Shown piece after piece: positions 32,862 to 47,706 of a stretch of DNA of 64,000 nt; position 1 is the first letter of the stretch, and each line of letters begins with the position of its first letter. The position numbers and the translations under genes are program-made. The DNA is taken from contig NZ_CP019422.1 in NCBI RefSeq assembly GCF_001984215.1, positions 62,001 through 126,000 on the forward strand, given 5' to 3'. The notes beneath the pieces were generated by a model. That model had not been told where the DNA came from. It saw only the letters and a list, made by a program, of their open reading frames with translations, and did no database searches. This DNA is from Mycobacterium sp. MS1601 (GTDB lineage Bacteria; Actinomycetota; Actinomycetes; Mycobacteriales; Mycobacteriaceae).

Positions 32862-34646
32862 TTAGTGGGACTGGTGTCTCAGGAATCCCTGCACCGAAAG
32901 TTGGGCGACCATCGCCGCTAGGGCGGTGTCGCCACGCTGGTGCAATACGTCTGCCACCTCGTGGGGTTGACAGCGCAATGCCCGGGCGAGTTCGTCGGCG
33001 GGGGAGCCGTGTGCATGACCGAGCAGGACGTGCAGGCGTTGGCGCGGTGGCCGATTCGCGCCGCAGGGGTGGGCTTCTACGGTTCCATGTTTGCGGTTGA
33101 AAGCCAGGACGAGGGTGTCCCCGAGCTGAGATTTGAGGTGCTCGGCCAGTCGGCGCAGTGATCCCAGACTGGCTCCACTGACCGCGGACACCCGCCAGAA
33201 GAGGGTCAACGGGTCGGGTGTGCCGGTGAAGACGCGCTCCTGACCGGGATCGACGCCGAGGGCGGTGGCGACCGCGGGATGGACTGTCTGGCCGGATCCC
33301 CGCAGCAGGTCGACATCGACGGTGATAGCGAGGCGTATCTCATTGTCCCCGTTGAGGAAAACCCCTCGGACTGTCTGGGGCGGCGAGACGGTCGGCCACC
33401 CATCGGCGTCGGTGCGTAGGCGTACGTGGCCGTTCTCGGTGACGAACGCGGGAGCACCCAGATAGCTCACCAAGGACTTTTCGGAGATGTCTGGGAAGGT
33501 CAGCTTCATGTCGCGGAGGAGGGCTTTGACGTTGTGTGATCCGCCGTTGGTGGCGATGCGGTTGGTGAACTCGGCGAAGATGCCGCCGTACTCGGTCAGG
33601 CCCCACTGCCGCAATGCCCACAGTTGCTTGGTGGTGCGACTGAACCGTTCGTCGTTGAACAACGCGTGCCGTATCACGTGGGGGTGGTAGTCGGGGCCCA
33701 TGGTGGCGGCGATCAGGTCGGCCGAGGCGGGGGCGGCAGAGACATGAAGGACGGCTTCGGCCTTGTCGGTGATCGTGGTTCCCCAGCGCACCCAGCGGTC
33801 GGCGAAGCGCCGTAGGTGGGGTCGGCTGCGCAGGATACGTTCAGCCATGGGTGCGGGGACGCCGAGCGGGGCCAGTTCTGCGGTGACGTCGCGTGTCGTG
33901 AGAACTCCGCGCAGCGCGAAGGCCTCGGCGAGCACGCCTTCGGCCTGGGTGAGGGCGTCGGTGTTGGCGCGTTCCAACCACGGGCCGTTCGGTGTGTAGG
34001 GTCCGGCGACGTGCAGCAGCAGCTGTCCGGATTCCGTTGTGAGGTCGAGATCGAGGTTTTTGAGCTCCTGTTCGGCGACAGTGGGCTCGGTCAGCGGTCC
34101 GAGGTGCTCACTGAGTTGCGCAGCGTGCCGGCTCACGGCAGCGTGGACCGGCTGGGCGAGCAGATGTTGGAAACGCTGGTAGGCGTGCGGTGTGTGCCGT
34201 TCCACGTTGATGGGCGAGACGCCGAGGTGCTCGGCGGTCTGCCGAATCGTCAACGGCTGTAACGCCCATCGCCGTGCCGATAAGAGGCGGCGGTCATAGT
34301 CGTCGAGCTGCTCGAGCATCCTGGTGACGGCGGCCGCCGCGTCGGTGTGGTCGTCGAAGGGCGGTGCCTGGGCCAGGGCGACGGCCTCGCGCGCCGCGGT
34401 AACGAGTGCACGGACGGTGCCGATACCAGCCTTCGGCCAACCCAGCAGCGAGGTGATCGTTTCCTCGGCCAGATCAGCCCACACGACGAAACGCTCGGCA
34501 TACAGCTTTTCCGCGCGACCGGGTATCCAGTGATACGGGATCGCGCTGTCGGCGATCTCCTCGAACCCCTCGATGAGGCGGCGCAGCGGCGTATCAGTGC
34601 GGAACCGGTTCTGCTGCCACCAGGTTGCCGCCGGATCGTCGCTCAT
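32862..34646 (-). CDS. Large sigma-70-region-4-like HTH protein
   Basis: 594 residues, no membrane segment. Residues 105-165 contain a sigma-region-4-like HTH (LDDYDRRLLSARRWALQPLT, then RQTAEHLGVSPINVERHT). The following 400 residues read as several winged-helix-like units, for example RGVLTTRDVTAELAPLGVPA and YGGIFAEFTNRI. No sigma region 2 is visible, so it is not a normal sigma factor. It lies last in a minus-strand series after the kinases and lipoproteins and may be the transcriptional output of that cluster, which is inference. Confidence 0.6.
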   Translation of the reverse strand: MSDDPAATWWQQNRFRTDTPLRRLIEGFEEIADSAIPYHWIPGRAEKLYAERFVVWADLAEETITSLLGWPKAGIGTVRALVTAAREAVALAQAPPFDDHTDAAAAVTRMLEQLDDYDRRLLSARRWALQPLTIRQTAEHLGVSPINVERHTPHAYQRFQHLLAQPVHAAVSRHAAQLSEHLGPLTEPTVAEQELKNLDLDLTTESGQLLLHVAGPYTPNGPWLERANTDALTQAEGVLAEAFALRGVLTTRDVTAELAPLGVPAPMAERILRSRPHLRRFADRWVRWGTTITDKAEAVLHVSAAPASADLIAATMGPDYHPHVIRHALFNDERFSRTTKQLWALRQWGLTEYGGIFAEFTNRIATNGGSHNVKALLRDMKLTFPDISEKSLVSYLGAPAFVTENGHVRLRTDADGWPTVSPPQTVRGVFLNGDNEIRLAITVDVDLLRGSGQTVHPAVATALGVDPGQERVFTGTPDPLTLFWRVSAVSGASLGSLRRLAEHLKSQLGDTLVLAFNRKHGTVEAHPCGANRPPRQRLHVLLGHAHGSPADELARALRCQPHEVADVLHQRGDTALAAMVAQLSVQGFLRHQSH

Positions 34647-34784
34647 GAGCGGTGATCCCCACGGGCGGCGGGCTGTGCTCGGCGTCGGCGGTCAGCCACG
34701 CCCTGCCGCCAGGCGGTGTGAGCGCTCATAGGGTTCATTGTCGCAGTGCCCGGCGGGTGTTGCTGACACAGCTTTCGGGGTGAT

Positions 34785-36053
34785 TCAGGAGCCGCGGAGC
34801 ATCAGGTATTGGGCGGCGACTTGCTGGTGGGCAGTATTGAGGTCGCGGGAGGAGGCCGTGAAGACATACCGGCCGAATGTGGCGATGCACTGGTAGCGGG
34901 CAAGCCCGCCTGCGCCGACGCTGCTACCGCAGTGGCTGTCGGGTAGGCCCGGCACTCCCGCGGCCTCGGCTGCGGCGTTGTCGCCCAGTTGTCCGGCGAG
35001 CGTGGCTGCCGCGGCGGGATCGCTGCTCTGGTACACGGTGGTCAGTGCAGCCGACACGACATCGACACCAGCATCGGTGAACGCTGCGCCCGCCGCCATC
35101 GGGTCGGCCTGCAGGTGCAGCGCGCCGTGAGCGTCGAAGGTGCCGCTGGCCAGAGAAGTTGGGTCGGTGGCCGCGACGGTGCGGGCCGCGAGGCCGGTCG
35201 GATCGCGCGGCAGCGCGACCAGCTGGTCGGCAGGGGTGGGGGTGAAGGTGTCGAGCCGGGCGCGCTGGTCGGCGAGGGTGTCGGCGACGAGCGCGACCGC
35301 GGCGTCGGGATCGGTTGCGGTGCGGGCACTGTGGACAAGGACGAAGGGTCCGCGGGCGGTGATCAGGATGGCTTCGTGCACGGTCTGGGTGCCCTCGCGG
35401 AAAGTGAGGAGGGCGGCGGAGGCGTCGGGGGCGGTGGGAACGGGGACGGTGCGGATGGGTTCGATGGGGATGGGGTCACTGCTGTCGGTGCGTACCAGCA
35501 TGGTCAGGGTGCCGTCGTTGAGTCCGGCGGCGACGCCGGCGGCGGTGGTGTCGTCGGGGAAGCGCAGCAGCGTGTTGCGCAACCGGGTGAGGGTGTTGGG
35601 GTGGGCGGCCCAGCGTTCGGAGCTGAAGGCGACCAGCATGGTGGTCAGGTTGGGGGTTGTGTAGGTGGTGGTGGGGTAGATGACCGAGCCGAGTTCGGAG
35701 GGGTTGGTGATCAGCGCGGCGGTCGCGCCGCCGCTGCGGGTCAGGGTGGGATCGATCTGCCAGGGGCCGGTGACGGCGCCGGCCATCCGGCGTCCTTCGA
35801 CGAGACGCCCGTCGGTGTCGGTGCCGGCCACACCGGCGGGCGGGGCTGCGGTGGTGGGGTAGCGGCCGGGTTCCAAGGCGGCGGGATCCTCAGGCATGGT
35901 GGTGGTTACGGTCGCAGCGGCGGCCGAGGGCGCGGTGGTGGGGGTGCCCCCGGTGTTCGTGGAGGTGCACGCACCTACGACTGCGGCCGCGGCGAGCAAC
36001 GCGGTGGCCTGCCGCCGCCGCCGGCGGGCGCGGCTGGTCAGTAGGCCATGCAT
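34785..36053 (-). CDS. DUF7373-type mycobacterial lipoprotein
   Basis: 422 residues from ATG 36053; the frame continues to 36260 but overlaps the upstream gene. A basic start (SRARRRRR) and hydrophobic helix lead to the lipobox VVGAC. The mature part contains the family stretch LVEGRRMAGAVTGPW and a Cys pair in the C-terminal domain (SHCGSSVGAGGLARYQC). Such lipoproteins are abundant in mycobacteria and of unknown function. It overlaps the upstream small lipoprotein by 16 bases and sits downstream of two transmembrane kinases, so it could act in cell-surface sensing. Confidence 0.7.
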   Translation of the reverse strand: MHGLLTSRARRRRRQATALLAAAAVVGACTSTNTGGTPTTAPSAAAATVTTTMPEDPAALEPGRYPTTAAPPAGVAGTDTDGRLVEGRRMAGAVTGPWQIDPTLTRSGGATAALITNPSELGSVIYPTTTYTTPNLTTMLVAFSSERWAAHPNTLTRLRNTLLRFPDDTTAAGVAAGLNDGTLTMLVRTDSSDPIPIEPIRTVPVPTAPDASAALLTFREGTQTVHEAILITARGPFVLVHSARTATDPDAAVALVADTLADQRARLDTFTPTPADQLVALPRDPTGLAARTVAATDPTSLASGTFDAHGALHLQADPMAAGAAFTDAGVDVVSAALTTVYQSSDPAAAATLAGQLGDNAAAEAAGVPGLPDSHCGSSVGAGGLARYQCIATFGRYVFTASSRDLNTAHQQVAAQYLMLRGS

Positions 36054-36529
36054 ACGGCCCAGCCGTCGTCGCCGCGGGTCAGGGGCAGGTCCACGGTGGC
36101 GGTGCCGGTGAGTTCGTTGGTGTTCTCGGCGGTGACGACCGCGGTGTCGCCGGTGATGGTGACGGCCTTGACCGCCATGGTGGTCAGCCCGGCCGAGGCG
36201 CGAGTTTGGCGGACGGAGTCCATGATTGAGCCGGTGAAGCGTTCGCGCATGCTCGGGCACATCAACGCTTGATAGGCCGCCCAGTTCTCGCTGTTGTAGG
36301 CGTCCTGGAACGCGGACAGGGTGTCGCGGATCTGCTGCTCATCGCTCGGCGGCGGCGGCGGCGGTGGCGCTTCGGTGCTGGTGGTCGTGGGAGCCGCCGG
36401 TGCAGTGGCGGCAGTGGCAGCGGTGGTGCTTTGCTCGGCGCTGCTGCCGTCGTCGGAGCTACATCCCGCGATCACCGCGACCATAACAGCGGCAACGCCG
36501 ATGCCGGCAAACCGCGACAGTCTGGTCAT
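36038..36529 (-). CDS. Small lipoprotein with an NTF2-like/DUF4878-like domain
   Basis: 163 residues. The signal sequence ends in the lipobox VIAGC. A Thr/Pro-rich linker containing eight Pro in a row leads to a compact domain (IRDTLSAFQDAYNSENWAAY, then GDTAVVTAENTNELTG) with two Cys (LMCPS and WAVCMA), probably disulfide-bonded. The fold resembles the NTF2-like extracytoplasmic domains common in mycobacterial lipoproteins. It lies 75 bases downstream of the first kinase gene in the same direction. Confidence 0.72.
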   Translation of the reverse strand: MTRLSRFAGIGVAAVMVAVIAGCSSDDGSSAEQSTTAATAATAPAAPTTTSTEAPPPPPPPSDEQQIRDTLSAFQDAYNSENWAAYQALMCPSMRERFTGSIMDSVRQTRASAGLTTMAVKAVTITGDTAVVTAENTNELTGTATVDLPLTRGDDGWAVCMAY

Positions 36530-36604
36530 GATGGCGATACCCCCGAATCAGCCCTGATGAACGAACCCTGCGTGGAGCGTAGCAACGGATCTGCTGCAGC
36601 GTCG

Positions 36605-38398
36605 TCACCCGGTGGGGAGGCGCTCGGACAGGGCATTGATGAGCGCCACGACATCATTGCTGCCGTCCGTGCGGCATTGCCGGACGTCGAAGATCACGTT
36701 GCCGCGGGTGGCGGCGCCGCGCTGGCATGCGGCGCCGTCGGTGCGTAGGTCCATGACGAGGACGCCGGCGGTGGTGACCGGCGGGGTGAACGTCCACGTG
36801 CGCGGCGGGCTTTGCGGTGCGGTGATGGTGACCGATCCCGCGGACGCGCAGGCCGCCCAGCGTCGTTGTTGGCGCAGCATGAATCCGGCGACCGGCGGGG
36901 TCACGGTGACGGCAGCTTGGACGATGCCGTCCTGCCAGGGTTGGGCATGCAGCGCCCGCAGGGTCTGCACCGCCGCTCCGGTCACGGTGTCGCGGTCGGC
37001 GGCGGTGTCGCCTTCAAAGGAGACGGGTTGTGCCGGGGACCAGCCGGAGACGCATTGGGGATCGCTGACCGTGGAGGGGTCCACGGTCACGTCGCTGGTG
37101 TCGCTGTCCAGCGTCAGCGCGGCGCCGGTGAGGGCCGTCAGTTCTGTTGCCGGGAGCAGGATCTCGCGCAGAGCGGTGGGTGGGATGTCGTTGGCCGGGT
37201 GCTGCGCGGTGGTCGGCGCGGCGCCCGGCGTCGGCGCAGTGCGCGGAGTCGGTGCGGCGGCCCGCGCGCCGGTCGACTCCGTGGCGGTGCCGGAATCGGC
37301 GGCGTCGGTGGTGGAGGACTCTGGCCAGACGGCAATCGCCCCGGCGGTCACGACCGCGACCGTTGCGGTCGCCGCGGCGGTGAGCAGGGCGGTGCGTCGG
37401 CGCGGACGTGATGGCGCGGCGCTGGGCGGGGGCGGCGCCGATGCAGCGGGGTGGGCCAGGCGGGTGCGGGCGCCGCCGTGGCGGCCTTGATCCCACCACG
37501 GCCCCGCCGGCGGCGGTTCTGCACCTGGAGGTGTTGGCACCGCTGTGGTGGAGCTGACCTGACCATTGGTGATGGCGGCGGTGGCTGCGGCGGCCAGTGC
37601 CGCGGCGCTGCGGTAGCGATGCTCGGGCTGCTTGGCCATCGCGGTCGCGATCACCTCATCGAAAGCCGGCGGCAGCGACGGCACCGACGCGGTAGGCCGG
37701 GGTGGGGCAGTGGTGAGGTGGGCCATCATCACCGCGGCCATCCCATTGGTGGTGGGATAGGGCGTTTTGCCGGTCAGTAGGCGGTACAGCGTGCAGCCCA
37801 GGGAGTAGATGTCGGCGCGGCCGTCGAAGGGGTCGCCGGCGAGGACTTCCGGTGCGGCGTAGGCGAACGTCGCGACTACCGAACCGGTGGCCGTCAAGCC
37901 GAAGTCGTCGAGGGCGCGGGCAATGCCGAAGTCGCCCAACAACACTCGTTCTTCGGGTCCGGGCGTTCCGGAGAGGAGGAAGTTGGCGGGTTTGACGTCG
38001 CGGTGCACGATGTTGCGGGAGTGGGCGTAGTCCAGGGCCGCAGCGACCTCGACCACGATGTGGACCGCGCGTGCGGCGGTCATCGTCCCGCAGCGTAGGG
38101 CGGCGTCGGCGTCGGTGCCGTTGACGAACTGCATGGCGATCCACAGTTCGCCGGTGTCGGCTTGGCCGCGGTCGTAGACACCGACGACGTTGGGATGTTC
38201 CAGATTCGAGGCGACGTCGGCTTCCCGTAGGAATCGGGCGCGGAAATCGGGGTCGCGGGACAGCTCAGAGGACAGCACTTTCAGCGCGATCTGGCGGGGC
38301 AGGCTGGGGTGGTCAGCGAGGTAGACCGAGCCCATCCCGCCTTCACCGAGCAACCGGTGGATGCGGTAGCCGGCGAGCACGCTGCCGGGGGTCAGCAT
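36605..38398 (-). CDS. PknH-type transmembrane Ser/Thr protein kinase
   Basis: 597 residues. The kinase domain (about 10-270) has the glycine loop [18 protein letters not shown] with the catalytic Lys, [18 protein letters not shown] and APEVLAG, so it should be active. A Pro/Thr-rich juxtamembrane region precedes the membrane helix ([22 protein letters not shown]). The extracellular part matches the PknH sensor domain, with [23 protein letters not shown] and further Cys that would form disulfides. The same domain appears without a kinase in the proteins at 41559 and 44019. It would sense an external signal and phosphorylate cytoplasmic targets, with the FHA protein at 42652 a candidate. Confidence 0.9.
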
Positions 38399-38503
38399 CG
38401 GCGCACCCAGCTTGCGGGGCGCCTGTCGGCGCGCCGGTGCGGTGCGCGGGAGGTGGCGCAGTTCATCGCCGCACTGTACGACGCGGCGGACGGCACCACG
38501 GTG

Positions 38504-40452
38504 TTAGCTGGCGACGGTGAACAGCATGGGCGGCGCCTTGGTCAGGTCGACGGTGCCGTTCACCTGGAAGGGGATGGTGTAGGTGGGGGAGCCGGAGGTG
38601 GCTTGGCCTTCGGCGGGGAATTGGGCGGGTCCGCCGCTGTAGGTCAGGGTCAGTCGCTGGGCATCGAACTCGGTGTTCACGGGTCGCAGGTCGCCGGCGC
38701 CGGTGATTTTGGTGGTGCCCGGGACGATGTTCGGCGGGGTGTTGTCGGGTGTTCTGCCGATATCGGGGCACCCGATGCCGGAGGTATTGCCGCTGTAGCA
38801 CTTGAACGCCCAGAACGTGACGGCGGAGTCAGCTTCCATGCGGCCGGTGTCGGTCAGGGTGACCTCGGGCGTGATCGCCGCCCGTCCGGGTGGCAGCAGC
38901 CGGTCGAGCAGCAGCGGCGGCGCGTCGGCGGTGATGTCGACGGCGTTGATGCTGGAGCCGACGCTCACCGCACCCGGAAACAGGGTGGCTGTCGGGCTAC
39001 CACCGAGCGGTATGTCCCAGACGGTGGTCACCCCGAGTAAGGGACTGCCTGGGTTGGCTACGGCGACGTCGGCGGTGATGCGGGGCAGCAGCCACCGATC
39101 CCCGTGGTGTTCGACCCCGATCTGCACCTGGGAACGTTGACCGCCGAAGGTGGCGGCCAGCAGCACCTGCTGCACTTGCGCTGGATCATCGCCCGGCTTG
39201 GCCGGGGCGCTGGTGACCGAGATCTGGCTGATGGGTGCAGCGTTGAGCTGGCTGGCCAGCACGTCATCGGTGAGGAACCGGGTATCTGCGGGGGCGGTGA
39301 CCACGAGATCCAGGGCAGCGTGGGCGTCGCCGGCGGCGAGTGCTTCCAGGTATTGCTGGCCGACTGTGCGCGCCGCGTCCTGGTGGGCGAGCTCCTGTGC
39401 GGTGGGTTCGGTGTCACCGGAGATGAAGACGAATCCTGCGACGACGGCGACCACCACGGCCACGGCCGCGGCGACGCCGGCGGCCAGGCGCCCGCGGCGT
39501 CGTGTCGGGCGTGGTCGGGGCGCCGGCGGCAGGCCGGGCTGCGGTGACGGTGGCGGCGCGGCGGCGGGGATGGGGGTGGCGTGCTGCGTCGGTGAGGAGT
39601 GCTCGGCGAGGTGGTACAGGGTGGCGCTGAGGTGGTGGGCGAACTCGCGGCAGCTGGGGAAGCGGTGTTGGGGGTTTTTGGCCAGGGCGGTGGCGAAGAC
39701 TGGGTCCAGGGCGGCCAGGTCGGCGCGCCGCTGCCCGGGTAGCGGTGGGGCAGTGTGCAGGTGTGCGCTGATCACCGCCACCGGGTTGGAGTGCGGAAAC
39801 ATCCGGGTTCCGGTGAGCAGGTGAAAGGCCGTGGCCGCCAGCGCGTACTGGTCGGCGCGGCCGTCGATGGCCTCGCCGAGCAATTGTTCGGGCGCGGAGT
39901 AGGTGACGGTGCCGACGGTCATGTTGGTGGCCGTCAGACCAGAGACGTCGCCCGTGGTGCGCGCAATACCGAAGTCCGTCAACAATATTCGGCGGGCACC
40001 GCGTTCGTCGGCGTTGCTGAGCAGAATGTTGGCCGGTTTGATGTCGCGATGCAGCAATCCGCGGTGGTGGGCGTAGTCGAGGGCATCAGCGATGGCCGAG
40101 ACGATGGCGGCGACCTCCGGTAGCGGCAATCCGTGCGGGTAGCGGTCCCGCAACAGCGCCAACAGGTCGGTGCCCTCGATGTACTCCATCGAGATCCACA
40201 GTCGGCCGTCGTATTCCCCGCGGTCGTGCACGCCGACGATATGCGGGTGGGACAGGCCCGCGGCCATGTCCGCTTCGCGCACGAACCGGGCCCGGAAATC
40301 GGCGTCGGCCGACCAGTCGCCGCGCAGGACCTTCAGCGCTTCGTGTCGCGGCAGGCGAGGGTGCCGGACGAGATAGACCTCGCCCATCCCCCGGCACCGA
40401 TCTCGCGGATGACGGTAAACCCGGCGAATGTGGACCCTGCGGCCAGTGACAT
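38504..40452 (-). pseudogene. Second transmembrane Ser/Thr kinase, frameshifted in the glycine-rich loop
   Basis: From ATG 40452 the frame encodes the kinase N-terminus ([11 protein letters not shown]) and then breaks at a run of five G near 40388. From MGEVYLV the rest is in the other frame to 38504. One extra G restores a normal glycine loop and a protein of about 649 residues. Catalytic elements are intact: [35 protein letters not shown] membrane helix ([21 protein letters not shown]) leads to an extracellular domain unlike PknH, with a Cys pair ([13 protein letters not shown]). If the frameshift is real, the kinase lacks its ATP loop. Confidence 0.82.
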
Positions 40453-40456
40453 GGCA

Positions 40457-41254
40457 TTACCCCCGGACAATGGTGGACAGAAACTGTGTCAACGCTGCGG
40501 CATGCGCGGCCGCGACGGGCTGGTCGTTCTCGGCCGCAACGATGGCCTCGACGGGAACAGCGGTGAACGCGGCGATGTCCTCGATGCTGAGATCGACGGT
40601 GTGGCGGGCGGTGTAGAGCTGTTGGCCGAGGGTCGCCCCTGGGGACAGCGCAGCGCGCGCCATGGTGGCGGTGTAGAGCCGGTGCAGCTGCCCGAGGCCG
40701 GCGACCGCCGCCGGCTCCCGCGTGAACCGCGAGAGCTCGGTGGCGACCATCCGCAGCTCCCGCAGCTCGGCCAGCACACCGGTCACCTGGTCGGTGAAGC
40801 CGGGCGCGCTCGGCGCCGGTAAGGCGGCACAGAGTGCGGTGAGCAGTCGCAGCGAAGAGTGCACCGTGCGCAGCGGTAACGCTGCCGCGGAGTCTGCCGG
40901 CACCGCAGGACCGCGCGGGACAGACTCCGACGGGCTGGGTGACGATGTGTTGTAACGGATCTGGGCGAGGGTGCCGCGCGGGCAGTCGAGGAGGTCTTCG
41001 AGTTTGGCCAACGTGTCCTCGCGTGGCCAGCTACGGCCCTTCTCGAACGCCACCAACGCTGCGGGACTGAGCACCTTGACCTCTCCGACCTGACGTTGGC
41101 TGATTCCGAGTTACGCCCGCCGGGCGGCGACGAACTGCCCGGCACGCAGGATGCCGGGATCACCGCTGACCAACGGAGCACCGAGCCGGCTGGTGTGCTC
41201 GGGCAGCGGTTCAGTCGCCGAAGTGTCCCTCGACGTCCATACGGAGGTGACCAC
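40457..41254 (-). pseudogene. Double-HTH regulator interrupted by a nonsense codon
   Basis: The sequence from a GTG near 41254 encodes a short leader, GILRAGQFVAARRA, then TAA at 41111-41113, then in the same frame LGISQRQVGEVKVLSPAALV and FEKGRSWPRED to the TAA at 40457. The paralogue at 42652 has Glu where this one has the stop, so a single G-to-T change explains it. The C-terminal second HTH (LGQQLYTARHTVDLSIEDIA) is intact. An internal start would lose the first helix. It is 4 bases from the frameshifted kinase start, and both sit in one minus-strand operon. Confidence 0.72.
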
Positions 41255-41319
41255 CGCCGCCTTTCCCACCCCACGACCTCCCACGTCCGCTTACCAGTGC
41301 GTTACAGTTTTACCATAGC

Positions 41320-41328
41320 TTAGCGCTA
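41320..41328. promoter_or_regulatory. TTAGCGCTA operator candidate before the kinase operon
   Basis: The 9-mer TTAGCGCTA is identical to 16600-16608 in front of the paralogous double-HTH gene and is preceded by AGC, extending the symmetry. It lies 66 bases upstream of the likely GTG start at 41254. Confidence 0.4.
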
Positions 41329-41558
41329 GTTTCTCTAGAACGTGGTCTTGATCGGCGCGCAGGACTTCGCGCGAAAACTGGCGAGTGAGCGGCGTTAACG
41401 CAGGCGCCGACCGGCTCTCACGTCGCCGCCCTTGTGCGGGCGGGCTCGCGCCCGAACGGCGAAGTGTTCAAGTTGTTCTATTGCATAGCGCCGCGCACAG
41501 TGGTTGACTGTCGATCCAGTTCAACAGAAGCGCACCTGAGTACCGGAGGGTCCTACCT

Positions 41559-42602
41559 ATGACCGACGCACCATCGCCGCAGGATGATCGTCGCGGTCAG
41601 CGCGGCGCCTCGGCCGACCACCGCGACTGTTCGCCGGGGCCGTCTACCCCTGACGCCCCGACACAGGCCGCGGTCCCTGGCCCCGATCAGCGATATCGCC
41701 GCGCGGCGGAGGACACCCGTGACTGGTACCCCGCCGGCAGCCCTCCCGGTGGCCCCCCGTACGCACCCCAGCCGCCGCTAGTAGCGCCGTGGGATGCTGC
41801 GCCGCAGCACAACCCGCGGCGCAGTAGACGTGTTCGCCAGAGCGTCGTCGCCGCCGGCGCCGTCGTGGTGATCGCGGCCAGCGGCCTTGCGGTGTATGCC
41901 GCGACTGGGGACCGCACCACGATCGCCGGTACCGCGACCACGGTCTCGGCCACCGCCGCTGCCCCCACCAGCACGCCGAGGCGCACACCGAGGCCGACGC
42001 CGGCCCCACCGCCGCCTGCACCGATGGTGGCCACCGAGGACCTTGAGCGCCTCCTCATTGATGACGCCGCGCTCAGCGAGCTGGTCGGGGTGTCGCTGGC
42101 TCCGGATTTCGCTCCGGTGAATACCACGATGTCGATCGAGGCCACCGACAACCCGCAGTGCCGGGGTGCGCTCACGGTGGCTGCCGAGCCTGCCTACGGG
42201 GAGTCCCGCTGGATGGCGATCCGCCGGCAGACCAGCCGCAACCGCGACACTAAGCGTTCGCTGGTGCAGGCGGTGGTGAGCTACCCCAGCGCGCAGGCGG
42301 CCACCGCCTATGTCGAGGCCCAGGCCCGCACCTGGAGGATCTGCGACGGCCAGATCATCTCGTTTGACCCCGACACCAATCCGCTGCCGATTCGCATCCA
42401 CTCGGTGCGCTTCGACGACACCGGCCTCAGCGCGGTCGCCACCTCAGAAACTCAGGGGTCCAATTGTTTCCGTGAACTGAGGTCTGTGGCCAATGTGGTG
42501 ATCGACACCGCAGCCTGCAATCCCGCCACGGTGGCTGCCGCGGAGGGGGCCGACGACGCTGAGCGCGTGGCCGCGATGATCGCCGAACGTATCCCCGGAT
42601 GA
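41559..42602 (+). CDS. PknH-like sensor-domain membrane protein without a kinase (first copy)
   Basis: 347 residues. A 95-residue Pro/Asp-rich cytoplasmic N-terminus precedes a single membrane helix (VVAAGAVVVIAASGLAVYAA) and a Thr/Pro-rich stalk. The extracellular domain carries the PknH-sensor pattern: TEDLERLLIDDAALSELVG, NPQCRGALTVA, WRICDGQ and two later Cys. The kinase domain is replaced by a disordered tail. It is preceded by GGAGGG and lies back to back with the kinase operon. It may act as a co-receptor or decoy for the kinase ligand. Confidence 0.8.
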   Translation: MTDAPSPQDDRRGQRGASADHRDCSPGPSTPDAPTQAAVPGPDQRYRRAAEDTRDWYPAGSPPGGPPYAPQPPLVAPWDAAPQHNPRRSRRVRQSVVAAGAVVVIAASGLAVYAATGDRTTIAGTATTVSATAAAPTSTPRRTPRPTPAPPPPAPMVATEDLERLLIDDAALSELVGVSLAPDFAPVNTTMSIEATDNPQCRGALTVAAEPAYGESRWMAIRRQTSRNRDTKRSLVQAVVSYPSAQAATAYVEAQARTWRICDGQIISFDPDTNPLPIRIHSVRFDDTGLSAVATSETQGSNCFRELRSVANVVIDTAACNPATVAAAEGADDAERVAAMIAERIPG

Positions 42603-42651
42603 ACCCCGGGGCCGGTGCCCACGCTCCCGTAGGGCCAGGAGCCGGTGGTGG

Positions 42652-43734
42652 TTAGGGCGCGGTGTTGGCGACGAACTGGGTCAGCGCGTCGAGGTGGGCG
42701 CCCTCGAGTGGCTGTTCGTGTTCGGCGGCCACGACCGCGGTGGTCGGGACGGCCGTGATGGCCGATACGTCGTCGACGCTGAGTTCGAGGGACCGCCGGG
42801 TGGCGTACAACCGTTGGCCCAACGTGGCCCCGGGTGACTGCGCGGCGCTCATCATGATGTCGGAGTAGAGCCGGCGCAGCTGACCCAGGATGCGCACCAG
42901 GGCCTGTCCGGCACCGGCGCGGGACAACTCGGTGGCCACCAGCTGCAGTTCGCGCAGTTCACCCAGCGCCGCGGCGGCGCGGGCGGGAAAGTCGGGGTCA
43001 CTCGGTGCCGGCAGCGCCGCACTGGCGGCGGTGAGCAGTCGCAGCGAGGATTCCAGCGCCCGGATCGACAAGGCCGCTGCGGCGTCCATCGGTACCGCAG
43101 CTGCCTGCAGCACCGGAATCGACGGGCTCGATACCGGTGTGCTGTAACGGATCTGAGCCAGCGTCCCCCGTGGACACTGCAGCAGGTCCTCCAGCTTGGC
43201 CAGGGTGTCATCCCGGGGCCAGCTGCGCCCCTTCTCGAAGGTCACCAAGGCGGCCGGACTGAGAACTTTCTTCGCCCCCACATCGCGTTGACTGATACCG
43301 AGTTCTTGGCGGCGAGCCGCCACGTATTGCCCGGTGCGCAAGATGGCGGGGTCCACTGCGGCCAGTGAAGGGTCCAGGTGGGTGGTGGCCTCCTCCGGTT
43401 CGACCTCCTGCGGGGGGACTGCAAGATCGGTTGTCGCTGGTTGCAGATGCACCGGCACGCCCTGCGGGTCGCCCAGCATCAGGGTCACCGGCCGGTCGAT
43501 CACCACCGTCGAAATGCGCTGGCCATCGAGGTACACCCCATTGCGGCTCGCCAAATCCGTGACATGCCAACGGTTGCCGGCAGCACTGAGCCGCAGATGT
43601 GACCGGGAAATCCGAGTGTCGTCGAGGTAAATCTGGGCAGCCTGATCCCGCCCGATCACCACATCACCGTCGGACGGGTCCGCCGTGTGGCGGACACCAT
43701 TGACGTCGATCACCAGCCTGGTCGCAGACTCCAC
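42652..43734 (-). CDS. FHA domain fused to a double-HTH (XRE) DNA-binding protein
   Basis: 360 residues. Residues 5-95 are a forkhead-associated domain with the phosphothreonine-pocket residues in VIGRDQ, RISRSHLRL and DLASRNGVYLDG. An acidic linker (QEVEPEEATTHLDPSL) contains a TT pair reminiscent of the phosphorylated motif of GarA-type FHA proteins. Residues 140-360 are the double-HTH module shared with the genes at 15751 and 40457. The architecture reads as a phospho-controlled transcription factor acting downstream of the neighbouring Ser/Thr kinases. No comparable named protein comes to mind. The gene is convergent with the sensor gene at 41559. Confidence 0.82.
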   Translation of the reverse strand: MESATRLVIDVNGVRHTADPSDGDVVIGRDQAAQIYLDDTRISRSHLRLSAAGNRWHVTDLASRNGVYLDGQRISTVVIDRPVTLMLGDPQGVPVHLQPATTDLAVPPQEVEPEEATTHLDPSLAAVDPAILRTGQYVAARRQELGISQRDVGAKKVLSPAALVTFEKGRSWPRDDTLAKLEDLLQCPRGTLAQIRYSTPVSSPSIPVLQAAAVPMDAAAALSIRALESSLRLLTAASAALPAPSDPDFPARAAAALGELRELQLVATELSRAGAGQALVRILGQLRRLYSDIMMSAAQSPGATLGQRLYATRRSLELSVDDVSAITAVPTTAVVAAEHEQPLEGAHLDALTQFVANTAP

Positions 43735-44018
43735 AGCTCGTCGTGTCCTCTCGCCCCGACCCGTTACGGAACTCGCACAAGTTCAACTTGATCATACCAC
43801 TCGTCGAACCACTCGACGGCTTACGGTGATCCATCTTTGCCAGGGCAGCCCGCGATATCGCACCGCCCGCCGAGCGCGCGTGCTTTCGATGTTTGCGCAG
43901 GCAGATCGGCCGCAAGCGGATCCAGATGCGCGCGAATCAGTTTGACTGTTGCGTTGAGCTAGTTATTGTGTAACGCTATGGGCAAGTTAAACAATAACGC
44001 CCCATCGGGAGGACGACC

Positions 44019-45032
44019 ATGGCCGACAGCGCCGCAGGCTGGGACACCCACCGCCACGGACAGCACCCCACGCCGCAACCGGTGTACGCCGGTTACCCAC
44101 CCGTGGCACCGGGCAGCGCAGAAGACCGCACCGAGGTGCTGGCGGCCACCGCACGGGCCGGGGCCAACCGCCCGAGTGATCCCACCCAGCACCCCCGGCC
44201 GGCGCCGATGGGCCCCGCCGGATACGCCCCGCCTGCTGCCCCCTACGGCCCGGCCGCGACACGCTATCCCTACGCCTTTACCGCACCGGCGCCGAGGAAA
44301 CGCCCGATCTCGCTGCGCCTGTACGGCATTGGCGCCGCGGTGGTCATCGCAGCCGTCGCATCGGCCGCCATCGCCATGGGCGCCGGCGCCGACAGCACCG
44401 GCAGTGAGGCCACCGCGAGCCAGCCCGGATCCGGTTCGGCCGGCGCACCGGTCGCCGCGCCCATGATCGGCACCGCTGATCTGGAGGGGCTGCTGCTCGA
44501 CAACGCCACCCTCAACGACGAGCTGGGGATGGCACTGGAACTGCGGGACATGCCCGGAGCCACCACGATGTACACCGACATCGTGGACCGGCCCCAGTGC
44601 ATCGGCGCCGTCGTGCCGGCCAGCCGCGAAGCCTACGCCGACTCCGGCTGGATCTCGGTCCGCAAAAGCATGCACACCGGCGTCGACACAGCGCACAGCT
44701 CAGTGACCCAGGCCATCGTCAGCTTTCCCACCGCCGATCGCGCGACAGAATTCATCGCCGCCCAGACCCAGGCCTGGCAGTCCTGCGACGGGCAGACCGT
44801 CGCGCTGGATCCCGACGACGACCCCCTGCCGGTGACCGTGGCCTCCGTCGGCAGCGACGGCATCACCGTGACGGCCATCGCCTTCCCCGAAGGCACCTCG
44901 AACAGCGGCTGCGACCGGGCCCTGCGCGCCGAAGGCAATGTCGTTGTCGACGTGCAGAACTGCGGCGCCCAGCCCAGCCAGAACGCCGCCCGGGTTGCTG
45001 TCCTCATCGCCGAGCGGACCGCGGCGTCATGA
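44019..45032 (+). CDS. PknH-like sensor-domain membrane protein without a kinase (second copy)
   Basis: 337 residues with the same plan as the protein at 41559: a Pro-rich cytoplasmic N-terminus, one membrane helix (LYGIGAAVVIAAVASAAIAM), a Ser/Gly stalk, then the sensor domain (TADLEGLLLDNATLNDELG, RPQCIGAVVPA, WQSCDGQTVALD). The upstream sequence has GGGAGGACG. It overlaps the possible upstream start of the protease gene, and both run in the same direction, so sensor and protease may be co-expressed. The start is the first ATG of the frame and fits the homologue's length. Confidence 0.8.
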   Translation: MADSAAGWDTHRHGQHPTPQPVYAGYPPVAPGSAEDRTEVLAATARAGANRPSDPTQHPRPAPMGPAGYAPPAAPYGPAATRYPYAFTAPAPRKRPISLRLYGIGAAVVIAAVASAAIAMGAGADSTGSEATASQPGSGSAGAPVAAPMIGTADLEGLLLDNATLNDELGMALELRDMPGATTMYTDIVDRPQCIGAVVPASREAYADSGWISVRKSMHTGVDTAHSSVTQAIVSFPTADRATEFIAAQTQAWQSCDGQTVALDPDDDPLPVTVASVGSDGITVTAIAFPEGTSNSGCDRALRAEGNVVVDVQNCGAQPSQNAARVAVLIAERTAAS

Positions 45033-45112
45033 GAACCCCGCGCAGCGCGGACCGCACCCACGTGCGCCGCAACCCCGGCGCCGGTCGCCACACCCAGCAA
45101 GGACCCACCACA

Positions 45113-46567
45113 ATGCAATGCGGCACCACGCCCCGACGGCGATGGATCTCGACTGCCACAGCGTTTCTCACGATCCTCCTCGCCGGCTGTTCCTCAACTA
45201 CCGGAGGACACGCGGTCTCCCCGCTGACCGATCCTTTCCGGGTCGGCGGTCTGCCGGCCGCCGACGGCCCCAGCGGTCCCCGCGACAACGCCCCCGCCCC
45301 CGAGGGGCAGATCGCCAACACCGACAACGGCCCTATCGACCAGCTGGCGCTGCTGGGCATCAACGACGTCGAAGCGTTCTGGCAGGAGCACTACGCCGAC
45401 ATCGCCGACGGCACCTTCCAACCCGTCGAAACACTGCTGTCCTATGACTCGGAGGACCCGCTCAGTCCACGCGCTTGCGGAATGCCGACCTACGAGATGA
45501 TCAACGCCTTCTACTGCATCCCGCTGCACGGCATCGCCTGGGACCGCGGCGTCCTGTTCCCCGTCGGGGAGAAATTCTTCAGCGATATGGCCGTGGTCGC
45601 CGTGCTCGCTCACGAGTACGGTCACGCCGTACAGCAGAGCGCCGGCCTGGTGGACGAATTCACGCCGACCTTGGTGGCGGAGCAGCAAGCCGACTGCATG
45701 ACCGGCATGTATCTGCGCACCGTCGCCGAAGACCAGTCGCCGCGCTTCACGTTGAGTACCGGCGACGGGCTCAACCGCGTTCTGGCCGGCGCGATCGCGA
45801 TGGCCGACCGCCCCTTGGGGCCCTTCGACGCCGATGACGTCGACGACGGGCACGGCAGCGCCCTCGACCGGGTCAGCGCCCTCCAAATGGGTTTCACCAC
45901 CGGCGCCGACGCCTGCACCGCCATCGACCTCACCGAAATCGAGAACCGCCGCGGCGACCTGCCTGTCGTAATGGAGGTGGCCGACCTCCTCGACGGCGGA
46001 CAACGCGAACTCACCGGCGACCTCATCGAACAACTCGCCGACCAGCTCTACACCATTTTCAACCCCGCCCGCACACCTGCACTAAGCTTCAGCGCGTCCG
46101 AGCAGCGCTGCCCCGACGCGGCAGCCGTCACCCCCGCCGGATACTGCCCGGCCACCAACACCCTCACGGTCGACCTCGACGGGTTACGCGAGATGGGCGC
46201 AGTCTCCGACCTCGACAACTACACCCTGCAGCAAGGCGACTTCTCCGCCTTGTCTGTCGTCATCTCGCGTTACGCACAAGCGATACAACACGATCGCGGC
46301 CTACCGCTGGACACCGCCATGGCGGGCCTGCGCACGGCCTGCCTCACGGGCGCGGCGCACCGAGCACTGACTGCCGACGCCGCAGCCAACGGTCTCACAC
46401 TCAACGCAGGCGACATCGACGAAACCGTCTCCGGACTGCTCACCAACGGCCTGGCCGCCAGCGACGTCAACGGTGCCGCCGCCCCCGCCGGCTTCACCCG
46501 CATCCACGCCTTCCGCGCCGGCCTCAGCGCCGACACCGGAACCTGCTACCAGCAGTTCACCGATTGA
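45113..46567 (+). CDS. Lipoprotein zinc metallopeptidase (HEYGH)
   Basis: About 484 residues from ATG 45113, chosen because AAGGA precedes it and a proper lipoprotein signal follows (ISTATAFLTILLAGC). An ATG at 45029, overlapping the sensor-protein stop, is the alternative. The zinc motif VLAHEYGHAVQQSAG (H167, E168, H171) is followed by LVAEQQADCMTGMYL, giving a third ligand Glu and the helix typical of YpfJ-like predicted metallopeptidases. Six or more Cys suggest disulfides. It would act on the cell surface; processing of the neighbouring sensor ectodomains is an attractive but untested idea. Confidence 0.82.
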   Translation: MQCGTTPRRRWISTATAFLTILLAGCSSTTGGHAVSPLTDPFRVGGLPAADGPSGPRDNAPAPEGQIANTDNGPIDQLALLGINDVEAFWQEHYADIADGTFQPVETLLSYDSEDPLSPRACGMPTYEMINAFYCIPLHGIAWDRGVLFPVGEKFFSDMAVVAVLAHEYGHAVQQSAGLVDEFTPTLVAEQQADCMTGMYLRTVAEDQSPRFTLSTGDGLNRVLAGAIAMADRPLGPFDADDVDDGHGSALDRVSALQMGFTTGADACTAIDLTEIENRRGDLPVVMEVADLLDGGQRELTGDLIEQLADQLYTIFNPARTPALSFSASEQRCPDAAAVTPAGYCPATNTLTVDLDGLREMGAVSDLDNYTLQQGDFSALSVVISRYAQAIQHDRGLPLDTAMAGLRTACLTGAAHRALTADAAANGLTLNAGDIDETVSGLLTNGLAASDVNGAAAPAGFTRIHAFRAGLSADTGTCYQQFTD

Positions 46568-46592
46568 GTTACCCAGCACGAAAGGCACCGCC

Positions 46593-46937
46593 ATGGGACC
46601 CGTCACCAGCCTCGTCCGCGCAACCCGCGACCAACTCGACCACCTCACCGCCCACCCCGACAACATCAACGAGTTCCTCCTACATGACGAGCGACGCGCA
46701 CCGCCCTCCGGATACCTGGACAAGTCCGTCGACATCATCCAGACAGCACTGGACGCCTCAGCAGTGAACGTCACATCGTCACCCGCAACATTCCCCGGTG
46801 AGCCAATAGCCACTGAACGCGGAAGAACCGTTTTCGCGATCTACCCCGACAAGATCCGGACCATCGCCGATGCTGTCGCAGGCCTCTCCGGGAGGAAATC
46901 GGCTCCAGACTCCACAAAAGCCAGCGAGACTACGTAA
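46593..46937 (+). CDS. DUF1877-like protein, N-terminal part
   Basis: 114 residues with GAAAGG upstream. The opening (LVRATRDQLDHLTAHPDNIN, then SGYLDKSVDIIQTAL) resembles DUF1877 proteins, which are usually about 150-170 residues. The stop TAA at 46935-46937 shares its A with the next ATG, and the short following frame looks like the missing C-terminus. This could be a frameshifted single gene or a coupled pair. The function of the family is unknown. Confidence 0.5.
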   Translation: MGPVTSLVRATRDQLDHLTAHPDNINEFLLHDERRAPPSGYLDKSVDIIQTALDASAVNVTSSPATFPGEPIATERGRTVFAIYPDKIRTIADAVAGLSGRKSAPDSTKASETT

Positions 46938-47017
46938 TGCACTACTACGACAACCTCATTCGCTTTCTTGAACACGCCGCCGCGCATGACTACGGCGTCC
47001 TCATCAGCCACGGGTGA
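46937..47017 (+). pseudogene. DUF1877-like C-terminal fragment
   Basis: 26 residues (MHYYDNLIRFLEHAAAHDYG, then VLISHG). The pattern of aromatic residues followed by a helix and a short strand is that of the last 25 residues of DUF1877 proteins. It starts at the TAATG overlap with the preceding gene and would complete it if one or more bases had been lost. Confidence 0.45.
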
Positions 47018-47241
47018 CACTGCCTGCCAATCGACTCATCACAACCGCCACGCTTCGATCCCGGAGCCACCCCACCGCTTCGGTGCAACCATCGTTCACA
47101 GGGTTGTGACTCACGGCTGTCCTGCGACCGTGAACTTCTCAGACGTCCCCTCACCAACTTCTGCGCCAGCGGGAACGTCATAGCGCCCAAAATGCCGTCG
47201 AATGAACGCATTTCGGCCCGCACCTGAAAGGCGAACACAGG

Positions 47242-47706
47242 ATGCCCTCAAACCCGGATGGCGCAACAGCCGCCTCAGCCGCGCTGGGATACCTTCTCAA
47301 CACCATCACCACCCGACTCTTCGTGTCTGACGAGCCCACACCCTGTCAGCAGTACATTCCCCGCACCGAAGGCCCCGACACCTGGTTCGCCGGCGGCGGC
47401 GACCTCACCCGCATCCACGCCATCGCACAATGTCGCACCTGCCCCTTCATCGGCCGCTGCGGCTACAACGCCATACTTACCGGAGCTACAGACGGCGTGT
47501 GGGGCGGAGTCTTACTGCCAGGCAACAACCCCCGCCGCGCTGCCCTCGAACACGCCTATCACCGCCTTCTTTCCCAGTTCGAGACCCGACGACACATCGA
47601 ACTCGGCCGCGCCCCAGTTCCAGCGCTACCCGCTGCGCCAGGCCGGAAACGAGCGCGACGGACGGCGCGCCCGAGCGCCATCAGTCCAACAAAGACCGCA
47701 GGGTGA
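47242..47706 (+). CDS. WhiB-family Fe-S regulator
   Basis: 154 residues, with AAAGG near 47227 upstream. The cluster ligands are C35, C64, C67 and C73 (AQCRTCPFIGRC), followed by the canonical turn DGVWGG (84-89) and a basic Arg-rich C-terminal tail (PGRKRARRTARP) that would contact DNA. All WhiB elements are intact. It lies at the end of the signalling cluster and is one of three whiB-type genes in the window. Confidence 0.85.
   Translation: MPSNPDGATAASAALGYLLNTITTRLFVSDEPTPCQQYIPRTEGPDTWFAGGGDLTRIHAIAQCRTCPFIGRCGYNAILTGATDGVWGGVLLPGNNPRRAALEHAYHRLLSQFETRRHIELGRAPVPALPAAPGRKRARRTARPSAISPTKTAG

What the first reader, a model, noticed from the sequence alone, without database searches (positions are those of the whole stretch)
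32862..47706. Plasmid-type signalling cluster: transmembrane kinases, stand-alone PknH ectodomains, an FHA-XRE reader and a surface protease
Two transmembrane Ser/Thr kinases, two kinase-less PknH-like ectodomain proteins, two lipoproteins, a lipoprotein HEYGH protease, an FHA domain fused to a DNA-binding protein, a sigma-like HTH protein and a WhiB regulator lie together within 15 kb, beside partition and replication genes. Seen directly: gene order, motifs and the shared ectodomain pattern. Known: FHA domains bind phosphothreonine, and PknH-type domains are extracellular sensors. Inferred: a complete surface-to-promoter pathway carried on a mobile replicon, possibly for sensing a host, a rival or the plasmid's own state. 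I know of no described system with this set.
Basis: partly seen in the sequence, partly recalled or inferred. Interest (0 to 1): 0.75.

Follow-up and report, generated by a model that had tools for sequence, protein, structure and literature searches.

The report
Plasmid kinase–EspM-like regulator signalling cassette
A mycobacterial plasmid carries a recurring set of genes that looks like a wire from the cell surface to a gene switch: a membrane kinase, partner surface proteins and a DNA-binding protein that should read phosphorylation, related to the known secretion regulator EspM.

Summary
The genes are there, but one "kinase" is damaged. Intact: a PknH-type transmembrane kinase (36605-38398), an FHA-XRE regulator (42652-43734), two kinase-less PknH_C membrane proteins, two lipoproteins, a lipoprotein HEYGH peptidase and a WhiB. 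The second kinase ORF (38504-40387) begins inside its kinase domain; the regulator copy beside it lacks FHA. The "sigma-like" protein is no sigma factor.

The set recurs in mycobacteria: a stand-alone PknH_C gene lies in 34 of 41 loci with FHA-XRE plus kinase, 7 of 20 with FHA-XRE alone, 0 of 35 with neither FHA nor kinase.

The regulator is a homologue of EspM, the ESX-1 regulator (282 bits, cut-off 550). PknQ-MupFHA on pMUM001 is the same kind, so the kinase-FHA link was tested there.

New here: MupFHA's main mapped phosphosite falls in a linker motif (acidic-x-T-x-V-L) found in 26 of 37 non-redundant FHA-bearing members. Near-identical motifs sit in cytoplasmic tails of kinase-less PknH_C proteins (15 of 66, shuffles 0.05), including that at 44019: possible docking tails. 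The window's own regulator lacks the linker site; phylogenetically paired tests had no power. No ligand or target genes were found.

The parts
36605..38398 (-). KinA: intact transmembrane Ser/Thr kinase, 597 aa; TM about 338-357; PknH_C ectodomain 406-593 with four Cys
   Evidence: Pfam PF00069 156.9 bits and PF14032 79.9 bits; GEGGMG, HRDVK, DFG, APE present
36038..36529 (-). small lipoprotein (lipobox VIAGC), DUF4440-like below the cut-off; starts 75 bp after KinA
   Evidence: 19.2 bits, cut-off 25.2
34785..36053 (-). DUF7373 lipoprotein (lipobox VVGAC; start chosen by the lipobox); overlaps the end of the small lipoprotein gene by 16 bases, so probably one transcript with KinA (inference)
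   Evidence: PF24088 129.7 bits and PF24092 75.3 bits; in the loci 23 of 40 strong kinase hits have a DUF7373 gene directly upstream on the same strand; here it lies downstream
38504..40387 (-). KinB: second kinase, ORF begins inside the kinase domain; the segment before it is out of frame; own type of ectodomain
   Evidence: kinase profile enters at position 13; intact relatives exist (P0002-P0005)
40457..41074 (-). decayed second copy of the EspM-like regulator: no FHA, stop upstream in the HTH
   Evidence: (62% identity to the intact copy)
41559..42602 (+). PknHC1: kinase-less PknH_C membrane protein, about 95-aa N-terminal tail, TM, ectodomain; no phospho-motif in the tail
   Evidence: PF14032 118.1 bits; matches PknH ectodomain structure 4esq, E 8.4e-14
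42652..43734 (-). EspM-like FHA-XRE regulator, 360 aa; FHA residues G28, R29, S43, H46, N65, G66 present
   Evidence: Pfam; NCBIfam NF052403 282 bits, cut-off 550; AF2 model pLDDT 88.6; FHA fold matches Rv1747, OdhI, GarA, FhaA
43372..43395 (-). EEATTHLD in the disordered FHA-XRE linker (residues 114-121), candidate phosphosite
   Evidence: inference by position with MupFHA Thr123
43824..43839 (-). weak copy of the element found upstream of FHA-XRE genes, 90 bp before the start codon
   Evidence: 13.6 of at most 24.2 bits; the window was in the training set
44019..45032 (+). PknHC2: kinase-less PknH_C membrane protein, 100-aa tail with EDRTEVL at residues 35-41, TM, ectodomain
   Evidence: PF14032 123 bits
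44121..44141 (+). EDRTEVL motif in the PknHC2 tail, candidate phospho-docking site
45113..46567 (+). lipoprotein zinc metallopeptidase (Zn_peptidase, HEYGH at residue 167)
   Evidence: PF04228 35.1 bits; the 11 plasmid records with a homologue at E <= 1e-20 all hold an FHA-XRE gene
47242..47706 (+). WhiB-family regulator, possible member of the set
   Evidence: PF02467 32.3 bits; Cys 35, 64, 67, 73
29088..30727 (+). ParA and ParB partition genes (backbone, context only)
   Evidence: about 78% DNA identity over 2 kb to plasmids of M. vanbaalenii and M. poriferae
32862..34646 (-).

Best explanation
This is a mycobacterial, mostly plasmid-borne kinase-to-transcription-factor cassette. Shown by sequence: a transmembrane Ser/Thr kinase with an exported sensor domain is linked to an EspM-family regulator (FHA domain, XRE DNA-binding domain, helical bundle), to kinase-less membrane proteins with the same type of sensor domain, and to lipoproteins and a lipoprotein peptidase. 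Inferred mechanism: an envelope ligand, perhaps handled by the lipoproteins and the peptidase, sets the kinase's activity. The kinase phosphorylates threonines in acidic T-x-V-L-like sites. Such sites lie in the disordered linkers of the regulator family and in the cytoplasmic tails of some kinase-less PknH_C proteins. The FHA domain then binds a phosphothreonine, either on the regulator itself (a GarA/OdhI-like switch) or on a membrane tail (docking). Either event changes whether the regulator sits on DNA. Likely targets are the regulator's own promoter and, more speculatively, plasmid secretion or transfer genes. In this copy the linker site is absent, so docking on PknHC2 or the site after the FHA domain would have to serve. 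Odds by step (my estimate): regulator is a substrate and reader of the linked kinase 0.75; tail docking 0.35; control of transfer or secretion 0.3.
For: Synteny: stand-alone PknH_C in 34 of 41 FHA+kinase loci, 7 of 20 FHA-only, 0 of 35 with neither, 0 of 2 kinase-only. Kinase within 10.5 kb in 20 of 32 FHA-bearing against 2 of 30 FHA-less loci with full flanks. All 15 fetched plasmid loci with FHA have kinase hits in the stretch, one only as broken pieces. FHA pocket residues kept in 60-65 of 65 members, near-copies counted; the model's FHA fold matches phosphothreonine readers. MupFHA on pMUM001: phosphorylated by PknQ on Thr210 (about half of the signal), Thr214, Thr123 and Thr8; FHA mutants lower binding and phosphorylation (PMC4238996); Thr210/214 fall in the linker motif seen here. 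Linker motif in 26 of 37 non-redundant FHA-bearing members, 500 shuffles mean 11.8, most 19; 2 of 16 FHA-less, shuffles 1.9. Tail motif: 15 of 66 tails, shuffles 0.05; 6 of 47 non-redundant, shuffles 0.036, most 2 of 2000 runs (66 and 15 recounted); 0 of 40 kinase juxtamembrane regions; 0 of 18 PknH_C proteins from loci without FHA/XRE. A second cassette (kinase, FHA-XRE with linker motif, PknH_C lipoprotein) lies on contig C2 of the same genome. EspM is a DNA-binding repressor with FHA + HTH (PMC7002343).
Against: The window's own regulator lacks the linker motif and PknHC1 lacks a tail motif. 11 of 37 non-redundant FHA-bearing members have no linker motif. The strict tail pattern was chosen after seeing the tails, although it also fits the published Thr210 site; 51 of 66 tails lack it. 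On the tree the FHA/motif and FHA/kinase links rest on five independent pairs: no power, median p = 1; the contrast is largely between clades. 20 of 61 FHA-bearing loci show no kinase in the stretch held. FHA-less plasmids of M. poriferae, M. vanbaalenii and M. gilvum carry a kinase elsewhere. The upstream element hardly occurs before other cassette genes, so no regulon is shown. ESX is not tied to the set: 14 of 26 FHA-XRE plasmids show EccC at E <= 1e-50 (3 matching records not listed). No phosphorylation, binding or expression data exist here for these proteins.
Confidence: 0.55

Rival explanations
1. Plain kinase-to-FHA-regulator pair as in PknQ-MupFHA or PknH-EmbR: kinase and regulator work together, but the kinase-less PknH_C proteins are unrelated envelope proteins and their tail motif is not a docking site.
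For: The biochemistry on record covers only kinase and FHA protein. Most tails lack the strict motif (51 of 66; 41 of 47 non-redundant).
Against: Stand-alone PknH_C proteins track the FHA+kinase loci (34 of 41 against 0 of 35). Tail motif rate is 0.79 per 1000 aa against 0.063 in long ORFs of six frames. PknH_C proteins from loci without FHA/XRE mostly have no tail (15 of 18) and none the motif.
Confidence: 0.25
2. The plasmid EspM-like regulators act on the host chromosome (whiB6/ESX-1) rather than on plasmid genes: the plasmid uses a kinase-controlled EspM mimic to tune the host's secretion.
For: Homology to EspM, which represses whiB6. M. smegmatis uses ESX-1 in conjugation (stated in PMC7002343).
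Against: The protein has diverged: 282 bits against 584 for a chromosomal EspM. The upstream element of the FHA-XRE genes lies before their own starts. No host target was tested.
Confidence: 0.1
3. A loose collection of plasmid accessory genes with no joint function; proximity reflects shared plasmid backbones.
For: The parts also occur apart: DUF7373 and kinases sit on Rhodococcus and other plasmids without the regulator. One kinase and one regulator copy are decayed here.
Against: The set is found on plasmids of different relaxase types and in chromosomes, at low identity, with re-ordered genes. All 11 plasmid records with the peptidase also hold FHA-XRE (chance 1e-4 to 4e-7 for assumed pools of 50 to 80 plasmids, taken as independent although some are near-copies).
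Confidence: 0.1

Closest known systems
PknQ-MupFHA(-MupDivIVA) of plasmid pMUM001 (PMC4238996; abstract, passages and section 31 read)
   Same: Plasmid-borne kinase and FHA protein of the same regulator family; the plasmid is in the hit lists for FHA-XRE, DUF7373 and kinase. Kinase phosphorylates the FHA protein outside the FHA domain, and the FHA domain is needed for it.
   Different: No DivIVA hit among the proteins scanned here (not every ORF was). The main site Thr210 has no counterpart in the window's regulator. That paper has 0 hits for 'helix-turn-helix' and 'DNA binding' and for EspM; its Table 2 does pair MUP018c with Rv3863.
EspM (Rv3863 / MMAR_5438), NCBIfam NF052403 (PMC7002343, PMC11005418; abstracts and passages read)
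   Same: Same architecture end to end: FHA, HTH, helical bundle, second HTH-like end; family includes FHA-less members.
   Different: Window protein scores half the cut-off, lies on a plasmid beside a kinase, is divergent from a PknH_C gene and not from whiB6, and is not next to an ESX locus.
PknH-EmbR of M. tuberculosis (PMC4601284; passages read)
   Same: A kinase with a PknH ectodomain and an FHA-bearing transcription factor as substrate.
   Different: EmbR is a SARP/OmpR-type factor with a C-terminal FHA domain; here XRE/EspM type with an N-terminal FHA.
GarA/OdhI and PknG (PMC8546545; passages read)
   Same: FHA protein with a threonine site in a disordered segment (peptide SDEVTVETTSVFRADFL); the disordered phosphorylated segment of PknG recruits the FHA domain, a precedent for docking tails.
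   Different: GarA and OdhI are not transcription factors, and PknG has no such membrane ectodomain (recalled).

Membership tests
EspM (NF052403 equivalog) | full-length FHA-HTH-helical architecture | tested here: met
   aligned 4-356 to model 10-364; AF2 model
EspM (NF052403 equivalog) | score over curated cut-off of 550 bits | tested here: not met
   282 bits; a chromosomal member L061 reaches 583.9
EspM (NF052403 equivalog) | divergent from whiB6 and beside ESX-1 | tested here: not met
   divergent neighbour at 44019 is a PknH_C gene; the EccC of this contig lies about 60 kb away
EspM (NF052403 equivalog) | represses whiB6 | not testable with these tools
   needs an experiment
PknH-type receptor kinase (KinA) | kinase domain, TM and PknH_C ectodomain with four Cys | tested here: met
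PknQ-MupFHA type pair | plasmid kinase linked to an FHA-XRE protein of the same family | tested here: met
PknQ-MupFHA type pair | threonine site at the Thr210 position of the linker | tested here: not met
   absent in the window protein; present in the C2 copy and 26 of 37 non-redundant members
PknQ-MupFHA type pair | kinase phosphorylates and FHA binds | not testable with these tools
   shown for MupFHA only
PknH-EmbR pair | regulator is of the SARP/EmbR type | tested here: not met
   XRE domain instead
FHA domain | conserved G-R, S-x-x-H, N-G residues | tested here: met
   G28 R29 S43 H46 N65 G66
Sigma factor (32862-34646) | sigma-70 region 4 over the cut-off, with region 2 | tested here: not met
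   19.5 bits against 25.7; no region 2 hit at E <= 0.1
Conjugative ESX plasmid (pRAW kind) | relaxase and ESX ATPase on the replicon | tested here: met
   TrwC domain on C3; EccC on C3, 99% identical to a M. poriferae plasmid
Conjugative ESX plasmid (pRAW kind) | complete type IV secretion gene set and transfer | not tested
   only weak TrwB-like hits seen

The most novel reading that the evidence does not exclude
The kinase-less PknH_C proteins are phosphothreonine docking receptors. The kinase marks the same acidic T-x-V-L site on their tails and on the EspM-like regulator, so the two compete for one FHA domain and the transcription factor is held at or released from the membrane. Several such cassettes, differing in sensor domain, run side by side in one cell (here on contigs C2 and C3), each tied to its own plasmid. 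The FHA domain of chromosomal EspM, for which the passages read of the two EspM papers name no partner, would then be the relic of, or still work as, such a switch: chromosomal EspM relatives keep an EEVTEIL site in the linker.
Probability: 0.3. Interest if true: 0.78.

Novelty: new variant of a known kind. Interest (0 to 1): 0.6.

Why it matters
It joins two lines of work that, in the papers searched here, are linked only by one table row: plasmid kinase PknQ with MupFHA, and EspM, the regulator that responds to the state of ESX-1. If EspM-family FHA domains read kinase marks at a conserved linker site, the open question of what the FHA domain of EspM does becomes a direct biochemical test. 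It also gives stand-alone PknH-like ectodomain proteins a concrete, testable role, and suggests how mycobacterial plasmids may couple envelope state to their own gene expression.

Tried and rejected
- Sigma factor reading of 32862-34646: rejected (below cut-off). Whether it belongs to the cassette is unsettled: in L024 and L025 it occurs with no kinase in the stretch, in L023 it follows the kinase.

- "Two kinases": reduced to one intact.

- Strict rule "FHA in the regulator if and only if a kinase is near": true for the first 18 plasmid loci (15 of 15 with FHA, one with a broken kinase; 0 of 3 without), softened by 20 FHA-bearing loci with no kinase in the stretch. The three FHA-less plasmids do carry a kinase elsewhere.

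- My first guess that FHA-less homologues were Rv0023/WhiB5 (recalled): dropped after the EspM match and the statement that M. smegmatis EspM lacks FHA.

- Regulon-wide operator: an element (AAAGATGTAGCATC, partly palindromic, holding TAnnnT) is enriched upstream of FHA-XRE genes (8-mer TGTAGCAT in 16 of 56 upstream stretches against 8 of 1120 random windows of the same loci, which include coding DNA) but is rarely seen before other cassette genes. It may be an auto-operator or just the core promoter.

- Phylogenetically paired tests: no power.

- Virus contigs: no relative. Repeat search gave GC-rich matches that I could not use.

- Papers on ESX plasmids and the Mycolicibacterium mobilome, searched inside by term: 0 hits for FHA or PknH in the three; kinase in one, as marker genes in a legend.

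- The link EspM-to-plasmid-kinase was looked for in paper searches; only the table row in PMC4238996 turned up. In PMC7002343 the words kinase and phosphorylat occur only in the reference list; in PMC11005418 kinase has 0 hits. Subscription papers, such as the first pRAW report (recalled), were not seen.

- Correction made on checking: an earlier count of 42 kinases had taken in kinases of loci L001-L008 from the same genome; recounted without them it is 40.

Full report
What is there. The window is bases 62001-126000 of contig C3 (190,985 bp) of a six-contig genome. That the host is a mycobacterium is inferred from its nearest matches. C3 carries a TrwC/MobF-type relaxase domain and an EccC ATPase of a type VII secretion system that is 99% identical to EccC of plasmids from M. 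poriferae and M. vanbaalenii. ParA and ParB lie at 29088-30727; 2 kb around them are about 78% identical in DNA to the same two plasmids. So the replicon is most likely a plasmid of the ESX-bearing mobilisable kind; a full transfer apparatus was not checked (weak TrwB-like hits only).

The cluster, gene by gene. KinA (36605-38398, minus) is an intact Ser/Thr kinase with one TM segment and a PknH_C ectodomain. Behind it follow a small lipoprotein (36038-36529) and a DUF7373 lipoprotein (34785-36053) whose gene overlaps it by 16 bases, so the three are probably one transcript (inference). PknHC1 (41559-42602) and PknHC2 (44019-45032) have no kinase: an N-terminal stretch of about 95-100 residues rich in proline, a TM segment and a PknH_C ectodomain with four cysteines. 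PknHC1 matches the solved PknH sensor domain 4esq. The FHA-XRE regulator (42652-43734, minus) is divergent from PknHC2. The peptidase (likely start 45113) has a lipobox and HEYGH. A WhiB lies at 47242-47706.

The second kinase ORF (38504-40387) begins inside the kinase domain. Four relatives of 651-658 residues start 22 residues earlier; the matching segment in the window is in another frame. The XRE ORF at 40457-41074 is a second copy of the regulator without FHA and with a stop in the HTH. Both are damaged, or the assembly is wrong there. The sigma-like protein does not reach the sigma cut-off. It is held in six loci: with no kinase in the stretch in L024 and L025, but directly behind the kinase in L023, so I lean to backbone without being sure.

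Is the grouping real? The regulator has relatives on 32 plasmid records of 72,556, 31 of them mycobacterial; in 26 of these the match includes FHA and XRE. I fetched 18 of the 32: 15 with FHA and 3 without. Left out: six M. ulcerans, M. liflandii and M. pseudoshottsii records on purpose, five that look like near-copies of fetched ones (H4, H7-H9, H12) and three with short matches (H30-H32). A genome scan gave 80 more loci (127 relatives found, best 80 kept). Over these 98 loci a stand-alone PknH_C gene is present in 34 of 41 loci with FHA and kinase, 7 of 20 with FHA but no kinase, 0 of 35 with neither and 0 of 2 with kinase but no FHA (flanks differ and some loci are cut short). In the genome loci with 9 kb or more on both sides, a kinase lies within 10.5 kb in 20 of 32 FHA-bearing and 2 of 30 FHA-less loci, PknH_C in 18 of 32 and 0 of 30, DUF7373 in 13 of 32 and 5 of 30 (p = 0.05), a divergent WhiB in 10 of 32 and 16 of 30. 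All 11 plasmid records with the peptidase at E <= 1e-20 also hold FHA-XRE; 22 of 26 mycobacterial records with DUF7373 do. Of 40 strong kinase hits in these loci and the window, 23 have a DUF7373 gene directly upstream. The sensor domain of the kinase varies: PknH_C in 7 of 40, the KinB type in 7, other in 26; in pRAW it scores as a periplasmic binding protein domain. Contig C2 of the same genome holds a second cassette: kinase, FHA-XRE and a PknH_C lipoprotein.

The regulator is EspM-like. NCBIfam's EspM model aligns end to end with 282 bits, cut-off 550. A chromosomal member scores 583.9; nine others, including pRAW's, 290-458. EspM (Rv3863) binds the whiB6-espM intergenic DNA through its C-terminal half, represses whiB6 when the ESX-1 membrane complex is missing, and in M. 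smegmatis lacks the FHA domain (PMC7002343, passages). The passages read discuss a possible role of the FHA domain but name no kinase partner; kinase occurs only in the reference list of PMC7002343 and not at all in PMC11005418. So the window protein is a homologue built on the same plan, not EspM itself.

The kinase link has been tested once, on a relative. In PMC4238996 PknQ phosphorylates MupFHA on Thr8, Thr123, Thr210 and Thr214; removing Thr210 takes away about half of the signal; FHA mutants R41A and S55A lose about 40% and 80% (section 31). Table 2 of that paper pairs MUP018c with Rv3863, although the text calls MupFHA unique. Thr210/Thr214 lie in EERpTHVLpTATT. In my alignment this is the linker between XRE and the helical bundle, where FHA-bearing members show strings such as ESTEVMTDTV, DEATEVLTDS and RTEVLTNTV, and chromosomal EspM relatives EEVTEILSGD. 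MupFHA itself was placed by its published peptide, not aligned in full. With a relaxed pattern the linker site is found in 26 of 37 FHA-bearing and 2 of 16 FHA-less non-redundant members (shuffled linkers: 11.8 and 1.9 on average). The AF2 model of the window regulator (36 sequences, mean pLDDT 88.6, pTM 0.46) has pLDDT under 50 only at 105-124 and 200-214, the two linkers. Its FHA part matches solved FHA domains of Rv1747, OdhI, GarA and FhaA, and the pocket residues are kept in 60 to 65 of 65 members.

Tails of the kinase-less proteins. Among 66 kinase-less PknH_C proteins with a TM segment and a tail of 40 or more residues, 29 have the relaxed motif (300 shuffles: mean 11.3, most 18) and 15 the strict one: two acidic residues, any, T, any, V/I, aliphatic (2000 shuffles: mean 0.05, most 2). 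After collapsing similar ectodomains it is 6 of 47 (shuffles 0.036, most 2): pRAW, alvei, the M. intracellulare type, the parascrofulaceum type, setense and the window. Controls: 0 of 40 kinases in the 130 residues after the kinase domain; 0 of 18 PknH_C proteins from 34 loci without FHA/XRE, of which 15 have no tail of 40 residues (these are the best-scoring loci of 13 genomes and reach only about 1.5 kb to each side); 0.063 per 1000 residues in six-frame ORFs of 250 or more against 0.79 in tails. The strict pattern was fixed after I had seen the tails, so the numbers overstate the surprise. Still, a pattern that also fits Thr210 of MupFHA in these tails suggests that kinase and FHA domain act on both. 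PknG offers a precedent: its disordered, phosphorylated N-terminus recruits GarA through the FHA domain (PMC8546545, passages).

How it most likely works. Shown: gene content, domains, conservation. Shown for a relative only: kinase phosphorylates the regulator, FHA domain needed. Inferred: ectodomain ligand changes kinase activity; phosphorylated linker or tail captures the FHA domain; DNA binding or position of the regulator changes; the regulator acts at least on its own promoter. For the last step there is only an upstream element enriched before FHA-XRE genes, weak in the window (13.6 bits), which may also be a core promoter. Function in conjugation or secretion is a guess: 14 of 26 FHA-XRE plasmids show EccC at E <= 1e-50 (three matching records were not listed).

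Against this reading. The window regulator has no linker site; only EEATTHLD after the FHA domain, near the place of MupFHA Thr123, whose removal cost no signal. PknHC1 has no tail motif. Twenty of 61 FHA-bearing loci show no kinase. On a tree of 72 regulators the FHA state changes at least 8 times, yet only five independent pairs can be drawn on supported branches, and neither the motif nor the kinase follows it significantly.

Verdict. A real, recurrent cassette; a new variant of the known kinase-to-FHA-regulator kind, with the EspM kinship and the shared tail/linker motif as the new elements. Interest 0.6.

Noticed in passing
window 15751-16491 (-): A second EspM-family regulator without FHA domain (NF052403 290.7 bits), closest in the tree to one on M. 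gilvum plasmid pMSPYR101.
   Followed up: partly
L107 12149-17019 (contig C2 of the same genome): A parallel cassette on a second contig that also holds an EccC-like ATPase: kinase with a weak periplasmic-binding-protein-like ectodomain, FHA-XRE with linker motif, PknH_C lipoprotein.
   Followed up: partly
G000 C3:141134-141864: Kinase remains in two pieces on the same contig: another damaged kinase.
   Followed up: no
L012 13799-17077, L020 20471-23914: Long proteins that combine two FHA hits with a PknH_C ectodomain; the one in L020 is annotated as an ABC protein. Looks like an Rv1747-type exporter (recalled) with a sensor domain.
   Followed up: no
L052 2000-9000: Seven PknH_C genes in a row beside one FHA-XRE gene in M. 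hubeiense.
   Followed up: no
upstream of FHA-XRE genes; window 43824-43839: Conserved element AAAGATGTAGCATC about 70-90 bp before the start codon in many loci; auto-operator or promoter.
   Followed up: partly
L010 10515-11335: Kinase in pieces in two frames beside an intact FHA-XRE gene on M. avium pS2b: the kinase may be lost before the regulator.
   Followed up: no
window 38504-40387 and L011 11962-12927, L012 1329-2513: The unnamed KinB ectodomain also occurs as kinase-less proteins, the same pattern as PknH_C.
   Followed up: partly
window 46473-46937 (+): DUF1877 protein next to the peptidase end (29.1 bits, cut-off 22).
   Followed up: no
window 34785-35948 (-): DUF7373 gives a confident AF2 model (pLDDT 87.6, pTM 0.86) of a kinase-linked lipoprotein family whose fold I could not compare.
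   Followed up: partly
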